Source of the DNA: Acidobacteria bacterium RIFCSPLOWO2_12_FULL_67_14b
Lineage (GTDB): Bacteria; Acidobacteriota; Vicinamibacteria; Vicinamibacterales; UBA2999
Direction of reading: 5' to 3'
Assembly: GCA_001768615.1 (NCBI GenBank)
Contig: MELE01000162.1
Coordinates: forward strand, 1-34,196
Length of the DNA: 34,196 nucleotides
In this document: positions 22,741-29,307 of the stretch, one piece after another
Layout of the letters: each line of letters begins with the position of its first letter
How positions within the stretch are numbered: position 1 is the stretch's first letter
The notes under the pieces: generated by a model
Told to the model about the DNA's origin: nothing
The model's database searches: none
Seen by the model: only the letters and a program-made list of their open reading frames with translations
Translations under genes and position numbers: made by a program

Positions 22741-24372
22741 ATGATGAGAACCGCCGCCTCCGCCCTCCTTGCCGCGCTGCTGATGGCTCACGCGCCCTCG
22801 GCCCAGCCGGCGCCGCCTCTCACACCGCCGGCACGGCCCAGGCTCGTGGTCTTCATCTCGGTGGACCAGATGCGCGGCGACTACATCGACAAGTTCCAGC
22901 ATCAGTGGACCAAGGGCCTCAAGCGCCTCGTCACCGAGGGGGCGTGGTTCCGGCAGGCCGATTACCCGTACTACAACACCGTCACGTGCGCCGGCCACGC
23001 CAGCATGAGCACCGGCACCGTGCCCGCCGTGCACGGCATGGTGCTCAACCAGTGGTGGGAACGCGACAACAGCCGCCTGGTCAGCTGCACCGATGACGAG
23101 AGCCAGCAACTGGTGACCTACGGGATTCCGGTGAAGGGCGTCGGCCACAGCCCGAAGCACCTGATGACGACGACCCTGTCGGACGAGCTGCGGCTGCAGG
23201 CCGCCTCGCCGCCACGCGTGGTCAGCATTTCGCTCAAGGCGCGCTCGGCGATCAACCTCGGCGGCCATCGCCCCGACGCGGTGATCTGGCTGGACGAGGC
23301 CGACGGCGAATGGGTCACCTCGACCGCGTTTGCGAAGGCGCCGGTACCGTACTTCGCGGACTACATTGCGAAGCATCCCTTGCGGAACGAGATGGGCCGG
23401 CCGTGGGATCGCACGCTGCCGAGGGATCGCTATCTCTACGACGGGTCGTTGCAGGGCCGGCAACGGACCGCGCTCGTCACCAAGGACTTTCCGCACATCG
23501 TCAAGGGGACCGGCAACGAGGTCGGTGGCGCCTTCACCGATGCGTGGGAGTCGAGCCCGTACTCGGACGCCTACCTGGCGGCCCTCGCGGCGGCGGCGCT
23601 CGACGGCGCGAAGCTGGGGCGCGGCGCGTCTACCGACTTTCTGGGGATCAGCTTCTCCTCGCTCGACAAGGTGGGCCACGACTTCGGCCCCGACTCGCAC
23701 GAAGTGCAGGACGTGCTGATCCATCTCGACCACGAGCTCGGCATGCTGCTGGACAAGCTCGATCGCGACGTCAAGGGCGCCTACGTGATCGGACTGACTT
23801 CGGACCACGGCGTGGCGCCGGTGCCCGAGCGGGTGAAGGCGCAGGGCTTCGACGCCGGCCGCATCAACACCGTCACCGTCGGCCGCGCCATCGACGCCGT
23901 GCTCGCCCGCGAGCTGGGCGGCGGGTCGTATCGGACGCGCGTGATCTACAACGACATCTACTTCAACGAGGGCGTCTACCTGAAGCTCTCGCAGAATCCG
24001 AAGGCGATGGCGGCGGTGCTCGACGTGGTGCGCAAGACCGAAGGCGTGTGGCGCGTCTATCGCAAGGAGGAGCTGTCGGCCACCGATCCGTTCACGCGCT
24101 CGTCGGCCTTGAGCCACTTCGAAGGGCGCAGCGGCGACATCAAGATGCTGGGCCGCGCCTACTGGATCACGTCATCCAGCACGAGCACCCACGGCACCGG
24201 GCACCGCTACGATACGCGGGTGCCGGTACTGCTGTTCGGCCGCGGCATCAGGAAGGGCGAGTACCTGCAGCCCTCGTCGCCGATTGACCTCGCGCCGACA
24301 CTGGCGCACCTGCTTGGCCTGACCCTGCCCGATGCCATGGGCCGGGTCCTCAGCGAAGCGCTTGTGCCATAG
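22741..24372 (+). CDS. PafA-like alkaline phosphatase
   Basis: A 543-residue secreted alkaline-phosphatase-superfamily enzyme with a signal peptide (ASALLAALLMAHAPSAQ). Active-site elements fit the PafA phosphate monoesterase: metal ligand D42 in FISVDQMRGDY, nucleophile T82 in NTVTCAGHAS, N103 in LNQWW, and the phosphate-binding pair K166/R168 in SLKARSA. They lie three to four residues from the corresponding PafA residues (T79, N100, K162, R164), and total length matches. Distal metal ligands appear in SSLDKVGHDFGPDS, TSDHGVAPVPE and STHGTGHRYDTRVP. This set distinguishes it from diesterase NPP relatives. Its role is organic phosphate scavenging in the periplasm. The 3' end overlaps the convergent kinase gene by 23 bp. 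Confidence 0.93.
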   Translation: MMRTAASALLAALLMAHAPSAQPAPPLTPPARPRLVVFISVDQMRGDYIDKFQHQWTKGLKRLVTEGAWFRQADYPYYNTVTCAGHASMSTGTVPAVHGMVLNQWWERDNSRLVSCTDDESQQLVTYGIPVKGVGHSPKHLMTTTLSDELRLQAASPPRVVSISLKARSAINLGGHRPDAVIWLDEADGEWVTSTAFAKAPVPYFADYIAKHPLRNEMGRPWDRTLPRDRYLYDGSLQGRQRTALVTKDFPHIVKGTGNEVGGAFTDAWESSPYSDAYLAALAAAALDGAKLGRGASTDFLGISFSSLDKVGHDFGPDSHEVQDVLIHLDHELGMLLDKLDRDVKGAYVIGLTSDHGVAPVPERVKAQGFDAGRINTVTVGRAIDAVLARELGGGSYRTRVIYNDIYFNEGVYLKLSQNPKAMAAVLDVVRKTEGVWRVYRKEELSATDPFTRSSALSHFEGRSGDIKMLGRAYWITSSSTSTHGTGHRYDTRVPVLLFGRGIRKGEYLQPSSPIDLAPTLAHLLGLTLPDAMGRVLSEALVP

Positions 24373-25270
24373 CGGCGGCGTCGTCGAGTGAGGGCACCGA
24401 GTCGATGGCGCCCGCGCGCGTGCAGCTGACGGCGGCCGCGGCGTTGGCAAAGCGCAGCATCTCGCGCGGCGAATCACCACGGAGCATGGCGTAGATGAAC
24501 CCGGCGCGGAACACGTCGCCGGCGGCGGTGGTGTCGATCGCGGTGACAGCCGGCGCGGGCTCGTAAATCAGCGTGTCGCCGTCGAGCAGCACCGCGCCGC
24601 GCGGGCCGAGGGTGATGCAGAGCATGCCGGCGTGCTGCTTGCGGATCTTGCGCAGCGCGCGCTCGGGATCGGCCTCCCCGGTGATTGCCGCCGGCACGTG
24701 CTCGGCGAAGATCGGCACGCTGACCGCCGCCACCAGTGCCGCCGTGCGGTCCGTCACGCGATCGAGGTCGCTGGTGACCGGCAGGCCGGCCGCGCGCGCG
24801 AGCGTGGCGGCGCGAATGGCCGCCTCCTGATCGACGTCGTCGACATGGACCACGCGGGCCGAGGCGACGAGCCCGGCGGGGATGTCGCTCTCGCCGAGCC
24901 GGAGACGGTCGTCGCGGTCCCACAACACGATGCGCTCGCCCGTGGTGTCGTCGACCGCGATCACCGCGAACTGGTTCGGAGCCTCACGCACGATGCAGTG
25001 GCTCATGTCCACGCCCCGGCCGTGCAGCGCCTCGCGAATGCGCCTGCCGTTGTCGTCGTTGCCCGTGGCGCCCACGTAGGTGGTGCGCAGGCCCATCGCC
25101 GCGCACGCCGACAGCGCCGTGGCCATCTGTCCGCCGCACGAGACGGCGTGGCTGGTGATGCGCAGCTTGGCGGTCGGGCTGTCGGCCCTGGGCGACGCGG
25201 GAAGGCGATAGACGTAATCGACCGAATTGGCGCCGACGCCGAGGACGTCCCACCGGACGCAACTGGACAC
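24350..25270 (-). CDS. PfkB-family carbohydrate kinase
   Basis: A 306-residue ribokinase-like enzyme from a GTG start (complement of 25268-25270). The body begins VLGVGANSVDYVYRLP and has SCGGQMATALSACAAMGL (substrate region), GATGNDDNGR, and the second PfkB signature AIDTTAAGDVFRAGFIYAM with the catalytic aspartate; the usual GAGD is AAGD. An ATG at 25291 is in frame, but lies upstream of a -10 box (TATACT) and only 2 bp from the divergent ATG, so the GTG, 7 nt after that box, is preferred. The enzyme phosphorylates a sugar or nucleoside; the GGQ pattern suits sugar kinases but the substrate is open. The product is cytoplasmic. Confidence 0.9.
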   Translation of the reverse strand: MSSCVRWDVLGVGANSVDYVYRLPASPRADSPTAKLRITSHAVSCGGQMATALSACAAMGLRTTYVGATGNDDNGRRIREALHGRGVDMSHCIVREAPNQFAVIAVDDTTGERIVLWDRDDRLRLGESDIPAGLVASARVVHVDDVDQEAAIRAATLARAAGLPVTSDLDRVTDRTAALVAAVSVPIFAEHVPAAITGEADPERALRKIRKQHAGMLCITLGPRGAVLLDGDTLIYEPAPAVTAIDTTAAGDVFRAGFIYAMLRGDSPREMLRFANAAAAVSCTRAGAIDSVPSLDDAAAMAQALR

Positions 25271-25277
25271 GACCGGC

Positions 25278-25287
25278 AGTATACGAT
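25278..25287. promoter_or_regulatory. Shared bidirectional -10 core between two divergent leaderless genes
   Basis: The 6-bp palindrome GTATAC (25279-25284) gives TATACT on the minus strand, 7 nt before the kinase GTG (25270), and TACGAT (25282-25287) on the plus strand, 6 nt before the VWA-protein ATG (25294). Neither gene has a Shine-Dalgarno site. One melting region could start both messages. Confidence 0.5.
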
Positions 25288-25293
25288 GCACGC

Positions 25294-27177
25294 ATGAGGG
25301 CCCTGGGCAGGCGACCGCGGTTCCCCGCCCCGCTGGCGGCGCTGCTGGCGATCTGCGTGATCGCCGGCACCGGCGTGTCGGGCCGCCAGGATCCGCGGCA
25401 GGAACCCAAGCCCCAACCGGAGCCGCAACAACCGATCCCCGTCTTCCGCGCCGGGACGGCCCTCGTGCGCGTCGACGTCACGGCGACCGTCCGCGGCGAC
25501 GAGCCGGTCACCGACCTCACCTCCGACGACTTCGAGGTCACCGAGGACGACGTGCCGCAGATCGTGCAGACCTCGCAGTTCGTCCGCATCGACGGCGAGC
25601 GCAAGTCGGACCTGAACGAGCCGCTCGAAATCCGATCCAAGGACCACGCCATCCTCGAAGCCGCTCGCGACGACGTCCGGCTGTTCGCGATCTTCCTGGA
25701 TGACTATCACATCGACAAGAAGCCCGACGTCACGCTGCCGCTGCGCGAGGCCCTCACGAAATTCGTCAGCCAGTTTCGCTCGAACGATCTGATCGTGATG
25801 ATGGACCCCCTGACGACCCTCTACGACCTGAAGTACACGCGGTCGAAGCCGGATCTGATCAACCGGATTCGCACCTTCGAAGGGCGCCGCGGCGAGGTCT
25901 TCCCGGTGAAGAGCCCGATCGAGGAAGCGCAGATGTCGCAGCGCAACTGGCAGGAGCTGCGCGCCGGCGTCACACTGTCGGCGCTCACGGCGCTTGCCAC
26001 GCAGATGGGCGGGCTGCGCGAGGGGCGCAAGTCGATTCTCTTCGTCAGCCAGGGCCCGCCCGTCCGGCCGGGCAGCCCGAACGACCAGCGCCTCAAGGAA
26101 GCCCTCGAAGCGGCCAATCGGGGCAACGTCACAATCCACGTGCTCGATCCGCGGCCGCTCGGCACGGTGGCCTTCGGCGGCGACAACGTGCTGCGCCAGA
26201 TCGCCGGCGACACCGGCGGCCGCGCCATCCTGAATACCAACAACCCATCCGATCAACTGACAGCCGTGATCGCCGACGCCAGCGCCTACTACCTGGTTGG
26301 CTACACGCCCACGCGCAGCGCCAACGACGGCAAGTTCCACCGCATCGAGGTCAAGGTGAAGCGGCGCGGCGTCAAGGTGACCGCGCGCCGGGGCTATTGG
26401 GCCGCGACCGAGAAAGAGATGACCGCGGCGGCCGAGGCGGCGGCCACACCCGTGAACGTGGGACTGACGACCGCGCTCGCGTCGCTGTCGCAATCGACCA
26501 CCAACACGCGGGCCGTGGGCATCTGGACCGGCGTGTCGCGTGGCGACGGCGAGCGCACGCGCCTGACCTTCACGTGGGAGGCCAACCCCGCCGTGACCGG
26601 CGACAAGCCCGCGCGCCTCGAGATCCAGCCGGCGGACGAAGCCGGCAAGCCGACGCTGGACGCGCAGGTCATCGCCGGCGCGCCGGGCGAGATCCCGATG
26701 ATGGCGAGGTTCGATCTGCCGGCCGGGCGCCACCGGATCCGCTTCACCTCGCTGAGCTCCGCCGGCGACATCATCGACCGCTGGATCCAGAACATGACGG
26801 TCCCGGCGCACTCGACCGAACCGATCGTCCTGTCGACGCCGCGGTTCCTGCGGGCGCGGAACATGATCGAGCTGCGGGCGATCGAAGCCAACCCGGCGGC
26901 GGTGCCGACGGCCGCCACCCGGTTCCGGCCGAGCGATCGCGTGCTGCTGGAGATCGAATGTGAGGCGCCGGGCCTGACGCCGGCGATCAAGGTCGAGCTG
27001 CTGAACGCGAAGGGCGACCTGTTGCGCCCGCTCGATGCGCCCCCGCTCGCGGACGGCAAGCTGCGCATGACGCTCGCGGTCAGCAGCCTCGCGCCGAGCA
27101 CCTATGTGCTGAAGATCACGGCGACCGCCGGAGACCACGCTGCCGAGCAATGGGCCGCGTTCCGCATCGCTCCGTAG
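25294..27177 (+). CDS. Secreted VWA protein of the acidobacterial VWFA-related type
   Basis: A 627-residue exported protein. Signal peptide about 1-31, then a Pro/Gln-rich linker (QDPRQEPKPQPEPQQP). Residues 45-100 form a beta domain (VRVDVTATVRGDEPVTDLTSDDFEVTEDDVPQ) that precedes the VWA domain in acidobacterial VWFA-related proteins. The VWA domain starts LFAIFLDDYHID: the MIDAS DxSxS is replaced by DDYHI, as in that family, so classical metal-dependent adhesion is doubtful. It runs to SAYYLVGYTPT and VKVTARRGYW, the family's closing strands. About 250 C-terminal residues add beta-rich repeats. The family is abundant in Acidobacteriota and supports the taxonomic guess; its function is unknown, probably surface or periplasmic binding. 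Confidence 0.9.
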   Translation: MRALGRRPRFPAPLAALLAICVIAGTGVSGRQDPRQEPKPQPEPQQPIPVFRAGTALVRVDVTATVRGDEPVTDLTSDDFEVTEDDVPQIVQTSQFVRIDGERKSDLNEPLEIRSKDHAILEAARDDVRLFAIFLDDYHIDKKPDVTLPLREALTKFVSQFRSNDLIVMMDPLTTLYDLKYTRSKPDLINRIRTFEGRRGEVFPVKSPIEEAQMSQRNWQELRAGVTLSALTALATQMGGLREGRKSILFVSQGPPVRPGSPNDQRLKEALEAANRGNVTIHVLDPRPLGTVAFGGDNVLRQIAGDTGGRAILNTNNPSDQLTAVIADASAYYLVGYTPTRSANDGKFHRIEVKVKRRGVKVTARRGYWAATEKEMTAAAEAAATPVNVGLTTALASLSQSTTNTRAVGIWTGVSRGDGERTRLTFTWEANPAVTGDKPARLEIQPADEAGKPTLDAQVIAGAPGEIPMMARFDLPAGRHRIRFTSLSSAGDIIDRWIQNMTVPAHSTEPIVLSTPRFLRARNMIELRAIEANPAAVPTAATRFRPSDRVLLEIECEAPGLTPAIKVELLNAKGDLLRPLDAPPLADGKLRMTLAVSSLAPSTYVLKITATAGDHAAEQWAAFRIAP

Positions 27178-27186
27178 CGTCGTGAT

Positions 27187-27203
27187 GCCGGCCTTCGGCC
27201 GGC
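27187..27203. terminator. GCCGGCC-TTC-GGCCGGC hairpin after the VWA gene
   Basis: A perfect 7-bp stem with a 3-nt loop starts 9 bp after the stop at 27177. The following sequence is pyrimidine-rich further on (about 27217-27253) but has no immediate T-run. It is a plausible 3' end stem for the VWA message. Confidence 0.45.
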
Positions 27204-27260
27204 TCCGCACGCTCAGTCTTGCGTCTCCTATTCTTCTGATCTTCTGAGCTCCTGTTGAAT

Positions 27261-27266
27261 TATTCT
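27261..27266 (+). promoter_or_regulatory. -10 box TATTCT 7 nt before the PQQ dehydrogenase start
   Basis: TATTCT (4/6 to consensus), then 7 nt, then ATG at 27274, without a usable Shine-Dalgarno site. This is another leaderless-type start. TTGAAT directly abuts the box, too close to be a -35. Confidence 0.45.
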
Positions 27267-27273
27267 GCCCGGA

Positions 27274-29307
27274 ATGATCCATCGCATGGTTCGCACCGTG
27301 GTCGCGGCCGCGTGCCTGGTCACCTCACTGGCGGCACAAGCACCGGCGCATTCCACCGCCACCGGCGAGTGGCCGACCTACGGCGGCGACCTGGCCAACT
27401 CGAAGTACTCGCCGCTCGATCAGATCACCGCCGCGAACTTCGCGTCGCTGCAGGTCGCCTGGCGCGCGAAGTCGCCGGACGGCTTCCTCAGCCTCACGCA
27501 GCCGGACGGATCCGAATGGTCGGCGGACTCGAAGACGATCTTCGACGAGCTCAACCGCCTGGACCCGAAGCGCTGGCGTGACGGCCGGCCGCCCTTCGTC
27601 CAGAACTACAAGGCCACGCCGCTGATGGTCGGCGGCACGCTCTATGTGAACACGCCGTCCTCGGTCGGCGCCGCGTACGACGCGCGCACCGGCGCGCTCA
27701 AGTGGGTCCACAACCCCAAGAGCTACGAGTCGGGCACCACGACGATGAGCCTCCGGTGGAACCAGCGGGGTGTCGCCTACTGGACCGACGGCACCGAGGA
27801 ACGGATCTACTGGGGCACCGGCGACGGGTATCTGATCGCCGTCAACGCGAAGACGGGCCGGCCGGTCCCCGGATTCGGCGCCAACGGCCGCGTCGATCTG
27901 ATGGACGGCCTGCCGCGCGCGAAGCGGGGCACGCGCGATTACCTGAACGCGTTGACCTACTCGGTGCAGTCGCCGCCGATCGTCGTGAAAGACATCGTGA
28001 TCACGCCCGCCGCCATCTCGTCGTTGATCAAGACGAAGGAACAGATCCCCGGCTGGATCCGCGGGTTCGATGCGCGCACCGGCCAGGTGCGCTGGACCTT
28101 CCGCACGGTGCCGGCCAAAGGGGAGTTTGGCAGCGAGACCTGGAGCGACGGCGCCAACGAGTACGCCGGCAAGGTCACGGTGTGGACGCTGATGAGCGCG
28201 GACGAGGCGCTCGGCCTCGTCTACCTGCCGACCAACACCACCGCGCCCGATTACTACGGCGCGCACCGGCTCGGCAACAACCTCTTCGCCGAAAGCGTCG
28301 TCGCGCTCGACGTGCAAACGGGCGGGCGCGTCTGGCATTTCCAGACGGTGCATCACGGGCTGTGGGACTACGACAATCCGGCGGCACCCAACCTGCTCGA
28401 CATCACCGTGAACGGCACGCGCATCAAGGCGCTCGCGCAGCTGACCAAGCAGGGCTACATCTTCACGTTCGATCGCGTCACCGGAAAGCCGGTGTGGCCG
28501 ATCGACGAAAGGGCGGTGCCGCCGTCGGACGTGCCGGGTGAAAAGGCGTCGCCGACGCAGCCGGTGCCGTCGAAGCCGGCGCCGTTCGAGCACCAGGGTG
28601 TGACCGTCGACGACCTCGTCGACTTCACGCCGGAGCTGCGGGCGATGGCGGTGAAGGCGATCGAGCCGTTCAAGTACGGCCCACTGTATACGCCGCCGTC
28701 GGTGCAGGGCACCATCGCGCGCCCGGGATCGACCGGCGGCGGCAACTGGCAGGGCGCCGCGGTGGATCCCGCCACCGGATACATGTACGTGCCGTCACGC
28801 AATGCGTTCGCCATTCACAAGCTGGGCCCGCCCGATCCCGCGCTGGGCAGCAACCTTCTCTACATGCAGACGGCGGGCCGCAATCCGACGATGCCCGAGG
28901 GCCTGCCGCTGTTCAAGCCGCCGTACTCCCGCATTACCGCGATCGACATGAACACGGGCGATCATGTCTGGATGGTGCCCACGGGCAACGGCGACCGCAT
29001 CCGCAACAACCCGCGGTTGAAGGGCCTCAACCTGCCGCCGCTCGGCGGCGACAGCACCTTCAGCGGCCCGCTGCTCACCAGGACCGTCCTGATCTATGCG
29101 CTGACGACGGGCGGGAAGGCCGGCGGTCCGCGGCTGGTGGCCTACGACAAGGCCACCGGGAAAGAGCTGGCGTCGGTCGATCTGCCGGGCGCGGCCATCG
29201 GCACGCCGATGACCTACGTGGTGAACGGCAAGCAGTACATCGCGATCACCGTGCAGGGCCGCACCCCGACGGATGTGCCGGAGCTCGTGGCCCTGACCCT
29301 GCCCTAG
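27274..29307 (+). CDS. PQQ-dependent dehydrogenase (membrane glucose dehydrogenase-like, soluble form)
   Basis: A 677-residue secreted quinoprotein. After the signal peptide (VRTVVAAACLVTSLAAQ) the opening EWPTYGGDLANSKYSPLDQI and ITAANFASLQVAW is the first propeller blade of PQQ dehydrogenases. Further marks are the HHGLWDYDNPAAPNLL tryptophan/aspartate motif, WQGAAVDPATGYMYVPSRN, and a final blade TPMTYVVNGKQYIAITVQG. The family oxidises sugars or alcohols in the periplasm and passes electrons to quinone or a cytochrome. There is no fused cytochrome domain and no N-terminal membrane anchor, so it is the soluble variant of the glucose-dehydrogenase-like clade. It is distinct in sequence from the PQQ remnant at the left end. 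A second ATG at 27286 is possible. Confidence 0.9.
   Translation: MIHRMVRTVVAAACLVTSLAAQAPAHSTATGEWPTYGGDLANSKYSPLDQITAANFASLQVAWRAKSPDGFLSLTQPDGSEWSADSKTIFDELNRLDPKRWRDGRPPFVQNYKATPLMVGGTLYVNTPSSVGAAYDARTGALKWVHNPKSYESGTTTMSLRWNQRGVAYWTDGTEERIYWGTGDGYLIAVNAKTGRPVPGFGANGRVDLMDGLPRAKRGTRDYLNALTYSVQSPPIVVKDIVITPAAISSLIKTKEQIPGWIRGFDARTGQVRWTFRTVPAKGEFGSETWSDGANEYAGKVTVWTLMSADEALGLVYLPTNTTAPDYYGAHRLGNNLFAESVVALDVQTGGRVWHFQTVHHGLWDYDNPAAPNLLDITVNGTRIKALAQLTKQGYIFTFDRVTGKPVWPIDERAVPPSDVPGEKASPTQPVPSKPAPFEHQGVTVDDLVDFTPELRAMAVKAIEPFKYGPLYTPPSVQGTIARPGSTGGGNWQGAAVDPATGYMYVPSRNAFAIHKLGPPDPALGSNLLYMQTAGRNPTMPEGLPLFKPPYSRITAIDMNTGDHVWMVPTGNGDRIRNNPRLKGLNLPPLGGDSTFSGPLLTRTVLIYALTTGGKAGGPRLVAYDKATGKELASVDLPGAAIGTPMTYVVNGKQYIAITVQGRTPTDVPELVALTLP

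What the first reader, a model, noticed from the sequence alone, without database searches (positions are those of the whole stretch)
25268..25296. Two divergent leaderless genes sharing one palindromic -10 core
The kinase GTG (25270) and the VWA-protein ATG (25294) are 23 bp apart. GTATAC in the middle serves as TATACT to the left (7 nt to GTG) and, offset by a few bases, TACGAT to the right (6 nt to ATG). If right, it is an unusually compact bidirectional promoter in which each gene's upstream promoter sequence lies inside the other's coding region, and it corrects the kinase start from the in-frame ATG at 25291.
Basis: partly seen in the sequence, partly recalled or inferred. Interest (0 to 1): 0.55.

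Follow-up and report, generated by a model that had tools for sequence, protein, structure and literature searches.

The report
Two leaderless genes, one two-way promoter
In an Acidobacteriota genome two genes run away from each other from only 23 base pairs, which seem to hold both promoters and both translation starts, and the same tiny layout recurs at other gene pairs in its relatives.

Summary
Observation confirmed with small corrections. The 23-bp interval 25271-25293 holds TATACT (minus, 7 nt from the kinase GTG at 25270) and TACGAT (plus, 6 nt from the VWA-gene ATG at 25294); the hexamers share the dinucleotide TA (25282-25283). The rejected in-frame start at 25291 is GTG, not ATG. All 9 genomes of the genus keep both hexamers with start-codon spacings of 7-8 and 6-7 nt, although the interval varies from 21 to 29 bp; AGTATA is the only 6-mer common to all nine. 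The GTATAC palindrome is not conserved (2 of 9). Two species carry 4 extra nt that separate the hexamers, yet each keeps its distance to its own start. TANNNT 6 nt before start codons is enriched in the genome sample (16 vs 2.3 expected). The layout is not unique: in 11 genomes 54 sites match CAT-N6-8-ANNNTANNNT-N6-8-ATG and 30 are divergent coding pairs (19 distinct, e.g. purA/hutH). Best reading: a bidirectional -10 core of the known 23-bp class driving two leaderless mRNAs. Both parts are known separately; the doubly leaderless pair as a recurrent unit was not found in the papers searched. No transcript data were available.

The parts
24350..25270 (-). PfkB-family carbohydrate kinase gene, start GTG 25270 (306 aa)
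   Evidence: Pfam PF00294 E 4.9e-43; below the cut-offs of all 23 NCBIfam models listed, so substrate unassigned; start supported by relatives
25294..27177 (+). acidobacterial VWFA-domain protein gene, start ATG 25294 (627 aa), signal-peptide-like N-terminus (by eye)
   Evidence: TIGR03436 acidobact_VWFA 155.3 bits, cut-off 81.25; no Pfam hit
25278..25283 (-). -10 hexamer TATACT of the kinase, 7 nt before GTG
   Evidence: TATACT in 9 of 9 genus members
25282..25287 (+). -10 hexamer TACGAT of the VWA gene, 6 nt before ATG
   Evidence: TACGAT, TAGGAT or TATAGT in 9 of 9
25282..25283 (.). TA dinucleotide shared by both hexamers (core ANNNTANNNT = AGTATACGAT, 25278-25287)
25271..25293 (.). whole 23-bp interval between the two start codons; inferred TSSs at or next to 25270 (-) and 25294 (+)
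   Evidence: TSSs are inference from spacing

Best explanation
The 23-bp interval is a complete bidirectional expression unit. RNA polymerase with the housekeeping sigma factor recognises two back-to-back -10 hexamers whose first two bases coincide (ANNNTANNNT). Bound one way it melts TATACT and starts at or next to the kinase GTG; bound the other way it melts TACGAT and starts at or next to the VWA-gene ATG. Both mRNAs would be leaderless, so no Shine-Dalgarno sequence is needed, and each gene's upstream promoter contacts lie in the other gene's first codons. Because the two -10s overlap, only one polymerase can sit there at a time, so the two genes should compete for initiation. Shown here: the hexamers, their spacings, their conservation, the start codons and the recurrence. 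Inferred: sigma-factor recognition, exact TSSs, leaderless translation, competition.
For: (a) 9 of 9 genus members keep both hexamers; -10-to-start spacing 7-8 nt (kinase) and 6-7 nt (VWA) while the interval runs from 21 to 29 bp. (b) Natural insertion: G002 and G007 have 4 extra nt between the hexamers, yet the spacings are 8/6 and 8/7. (c) AGTATA is the only 6-mer present in all nine intervals. (d) Kinase start: in relatives an in-frame stop lies directly upstream, or the 25291 codon is CTG. (e) 13 of 28 distinct PfkB loci outside the genus also carry TANNNT 5-9 nt before a candidate start, against 0-4 loci in other 5-nt distance bins. (f) 238 genes in 384 kb of this genome: TANNNT 6 nt before ATG/GTG 16 times, background 2.3 per position, Poisson P 3e-9; 31 of 238 genes at 6-8 nt. 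(g) Same layout elsewhere: 137 matches in 43 genomes against 48 for the backward control pattern, and 66 (backward 31) for a shifted spacing (sums); in 11 genomes 30 of 54 sites are divergent coding pairs, 19 distinct. (h) In one representative of each of those 19 pairs the unconstrained bases lean to -10 consensus: fourth base A in 21 of 38 hexamers, fifth base C or A in 32 of 38. (i) The kinase start has an SD-like AGGA/GGAG/GAGG in 0 of 9 genomes.
Against: No transcript, ribosome or protein data. No -35 element stands out: 3 of 38 upstream regions have 4 or more TTGACA matches at spacer 16-18, against 1 of 38 and 11 of 38 at control spacers. AGGA-like motifs, which could act as SD, precede the VWA start in 6 of 9 genomes. 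In G000 alone the looser pattern with GTG allowed is barely enriched (17 forward and 11 reverse against 10 and 11) and most sites are not gene pairs. Three of ten sites at a 10-12 nt control spacing in G000 are divergent coding pairs, so short leaders may occur with the same core. G008 keeps the core although its kinase is broken.
Confidence: 0.8

Rival explanations
1. Only the kinase uses this promoter leaderlessly; the VWA gene is translated from an ordinary SD-led mRNA started further upstream inside the kinase gene, with AGGA in TAGGAT acting as SD.
For: AGGA-like motif within 14 nt before the VWA ATG in 6 of 9 genomes.
Against: The motif is absent in 3 of 9 (TACGAT in G000 and G006, TATAGT in G004) while TA...T is kept in 9 of 9; spacing is fixed as for a -10; genome-wide 6-nt TANNNT signal.
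Confidence: 0.12
2. The AGTATA core is an operator for a DNA-binding regulator (palindromic site) and the promoters lie elsewhere.
For: GTATAC is a palindrome in G000; divergent genes can share operators (for example the CsoR box over overlapping -10s, PMC5057107, passages).
Against: The palindrome is lost in 7 of 9 relatives while AGTATA and a TANNNT on the other strand persist; 4 extra nt are tolerated between the halves in two species; unrelated gene pairs carry the same kind of core.
Confidence: 0.06
3. Chance AT-rich hexamers in a short gap.
For: TANNNT is short and the first pattern search of one genome is noisy.
Against: 9 of 9 conservation with fixed spacings in a 63-70% GC window.
Confidence: 0.02

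Closest known systems
Bacterial bidirectional promoters with a symmetric -10 core (PMC12825309: introduction and passages read; PMC10268837: first of three parts of the text read; the earlier genome-wide paper that they cite was not read)
   Same: One short core, two overlapping -10 elements, divergent TSSs; TSS distances of 18, 10 and 23 bp are the common ones, and this site (24 by first bases of the start codons) fits the 23-bp class in which, by my own geometry, the two TA dinucleotides coincide.
   Different: There TSSs were mapped in enterobacteria, and leaderless does not occur in the text of PMC12825309; here both products would be leaderless mRNAs starting at conserved start codons.
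Leaderless genes with TANNNT about 12 bp before the start (PMC3160421, passages read; Deinococcus-Thermus study PMC12340547, one abstract passage read)
   Same: Same motif and position; Acidobacteria predicted to have such genes in 3 of 3 genomes, average 13.3%.
   Different: No divergent doubly leaderless pairs seen: the terms divergent, bidirectional and head-to-head have no occurrence in PMC12340547, and divergent none in PMC3160421.
csoR-cueA divergon of Bradyrhizobium liaoningense (PMC5057107, passages read)
   Same: Partly overlapping -10 elements, divergent genes, csoR mRNA leaderless by 5' RACE.
   Different: Only one side leaderless (cueA leader 42 nt); a regulator box overlies the core.
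lysG-lysE of M. tuberculosis (PMC5648196, passages read)
   Same: Divergent genes with overlapping promoters and a leaderless lysE transcript.
   Different: 108-bp intergenic region; the leaderless transcript comes from a second, separate promoter.

Membership tests
Leaderless bacterial gene (kinase) | -10 hexamer TANNNT about 6-8 nt before the start codon | tested here: met
   TATACT N7 GTG; 9 of 9 genus members
Leaderless bacterial gene (VWA) | -10 hexamer TANNNT about 6-8 nt before the start codon | tested here: met
   TACGAT N6 ATG; 9 of 9
Leaderless bacterial gene (kinase) | no Shine-Dalgarno sequence | tested here: met
   AGGA/GGAG/GAGG in the last 14 nt in 0 of 9
Leaderless bacterial gene (VWA) | no Shine-Dalgarno sequence | tested here: inconclusive
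   absent in G000, but an AGGA-like motif in 6 of 9 genomes, overlapping the -10
Leaderless bacterial gene (both) | TSS at the first base of the start codon | not testable with these tools
   no transcript data
Bidirectional promoter, 23-bp class | overlapping -10 elements on opposite strands | tested here: met
   hexamers share 25282-25283; overlap by 2 bp in 6 of 9, by 4 bp in G004, separated by 2 bp in G002 and G007
Bidirectional promoter, 23-bp class | divergent TSSs measured on both strands | not testable with these tools
   no transcript data

The most novel reading that the evidence does not exclude
A whole lineage of Acidobacteriota uses a recurrent minimal unit in which 21-29 bp hold two overlapping -10s, two TSSs and two start codons, so that polymerase orientation alone decides which of two leaderless genes is expressed; conserved pairs such as purA/hutH, rpiB/methyltransferase and PfkB/VWA would be coupled by mutual exclusion.
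Probability: 0.35. Interest if true: 0.7.

Novelty: new variant of a known kind. Interest (0 to 1): 0.5.

Why it matters
It joins two phenomena usually treated apart, bidirectional promoters and leaderless mRNAs, into what looks like one of the smallest possible divergent gene units, and its conservation suggests that it is under selection. It gives a clean test of polymerase-orientation competition without leaders or recognisable -35 elements, corrects a start codon, and predicts more paired starts in this lineage from sequence alone.

Tried and rejected
Rejected: kinase start at GTG 25291 (in-frame stops or CTG in relatives). Rejected: an upstream ATG inside the VWA -10 (GATG, present in 8 of 9; by eye it is in frame with the gene only in G005 and G007). 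Rejected: a conserved palindrome as the essential feature. Rejected: an Rfam RNA in 24900-25700 (0 matches). Led nowhere: the -35 search; the looser whole-genome pattern with GTG, which is mostly noise. Other overlaps, one count each in the 9 genus genomes: ANTATANT 13 matches against 0 backward; hexamers 2 nt apart 3 against 0, two of the three being this same gene pair.

Dropped rows: the test set is all 54 sites of 11 of the 43 genomes; the shifted-spacing set is 20 of the 26 sites of those 11 genomes. Of the 20, 5 were divergent coding pairs, all one orthologous pair by their N-termini; two of the six sites not fetched (G006:C171, G008:C267) look like the same pair by sequence. In some searches non-genus PfkB loci were dropped as duplicates (28 distinct kept), and loci whose match began after residue 12 were left out. 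L104 was not counted as a pair because its right-hand gene runs into an N gap; its relatives L171, L179 and L187 were counted. Literature searches for the doubly leaderless layout: (listings and starts of abstracts), with passages or parts of six papers read.

Full report
Observation. The interval 25271-25293 separates a minus-strand GTG (25270) from a plus-strand ATG (25294). It contains TATACT on the minus strand (25283-25278, 7 nt from GTG) and TACGAT on the plus strand (25282-25287, 6 nt from ATG); their first two bases, TA at 25282-25283, are the same base pairs. The in-frame codon at 25291 is GTG, not ATG. The minus gene is a PfkB kinase (PF00294) of unassigned substrate, and the plus gene an acidobacterial VWFA protein (TIGR03436). 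The window is a contig of a 5.3-Mb genome; the named relatives of the kinase are Acidobacteriota MAGs, one labelled Luteitalea.

Conservation. The kinase was found in 34 of 43 family genomes and the VWA protein in 23 of 43. The divergent pair is present in 8 of 9 genus genomes; in the ninth, G008, the VWA gene is present and the kinase broken (residues 6-55 then 251-270 remain), but the interval is kept. In all nine the kinase side reads TATACT with 7 or 8 nt to the start and the VWA side reads TACGAT, TAGGAT or TATAGT with 6 or 7 nt to the ATG. The interval itself is 21, 23, 23, 24, 24, 24, 25, 28 or 29 bp. Two species have four extra bases between the hexamers and still keep both spacings: the constrained quantity is hexamer-to-own-start, as expected for two leaderless promoters. 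AGTATA is the only 6-mer in all nine intervals.

Start codons. Upstream of the inferred kinase start, relatives have in-frame stops (G006, G002, G007, G003), and G006 has CTG where the window has GTG 25291. The start at 25270 is therefore well supported. Outside the genus, with other neighbours, 13 of 28 distinct PfkB loci carry TANNNT 5-9 nt before a candidate start, against 0-4 loci in other distance bins. Loci in which a codirectional gene ends close upstream mostly lack it. I infer that the leaderless kinase promoter is older than the pairing with the VWA gene.

Genome background. In 21 stretches (383,873 bases, 20 fetched plus the window) a simple codon-score caller accepted 238 genes. 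TANNNT ends 6 nt before a candidate ATG/GTG 16 times, against a mean of 2.3 at distances 12-99 (Poisson P 3e-9); 31 of 238 genes have it at 6-8 nt. This agrees in size with the predicted 13.3% average of leaderless genes in Acidobacteria (PMC3160421, passage).

Recurrence. The pattern CAT-N6-8-ANNNTANNNT-N6-8-ATG matches 137 times in 43 family genomes against 48 for the backward control; with spacings of 13-15 it matches 66 times against 31 (sums). Orthologous sites recur between genomes, so these are not independent events. Of all 54 sites in 11 genomes, 30 have coding-like ORFs of at least 80 codons on both sides, falling into 19 distinct gene pairs; of 20 shifted sites 5 do, all one pair. 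Examples by Pfam: adenylosuccinate synthetase with an aromatic amino acid lyase (called purA/hutH here from recall), enoyl-CoA hydratase with a NUDIX protein, RpiB-type isomerase with a PUA/SAM methyltransferase. The purA/hutH core TAGGATACAGT is also seen in five genomes of another genus; in three of nine window-genus members (G002, G004, G003) the hutH start is not adjacent, by eye. A tighter overlap, ANTATANT, gives 13 matches against 0 backward in the genus.

Mechanism and limits. The simplest reading is a bidirectional promoter of the 23-bp class described for E. coli (PMC12825309, introduction), here with both transcripts starting at start codons. That paper states that opposing polymerases cannot bind such a promoter at once; competition between the two genes is therefore expected but untested here. 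No -35 signal was found. Everything about transcription is inferred from sequence.

Novelty. Overlapping divergent -10s and leaderless mRNAs are both known, and one divergon with overlapping -10s and one leaderless side is published (csoR-cueA, PMC5057107, passages). In the searches made (open-licence PMC only) I saw no report of doubly leaderless pairs as a recurrent unit.

Noticed in passing
L055 (G008 contig C146), interval and about 230 bp beyond: The kinase is broken in this species (two fragments fused) while the divergent core and the VWA gene are kept.
   Followed up: partly
L204, L205, L208, L215, L219 near position 900: One orthologous divergent pair (a 93-codon ORF, microcompartment-shell-like as recalled, and a lipoprotein-like ORF) has a shared-TA core 13 nt from both starts in 5 genomes.
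   Followed up: no
L111, L113, L115 near position 1515: Divergent coding pairs in this genome with a core of the same kind but 10-12 nt from a start on at least one side.
   Followed up: no
L118-L147, start of purA: purA is preceded by a TANNNT hexamer close to its start in most family genomes, by eye.
   Followed up: no
window 18584 (-): Candidate start GTG with TATTAT 6 nt upstream: another possible leaderless gene in the window.
   Followed up: no
G000 contig C65 near 26575-27522 (L002, L003): A second PfkB paralogue, about 56% identical, without the TANNNT hexamer at 5-9 nt.
   Followed up: no
9 genus genomes, sites listed: CAT-N6-8-ANTATANT-N6-8-ATG: 13 matches, 0 backward controls, several apparently orthologous; flanking genes not checked except for G004's kinase/VWA pair and L166.
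   Followed up: no
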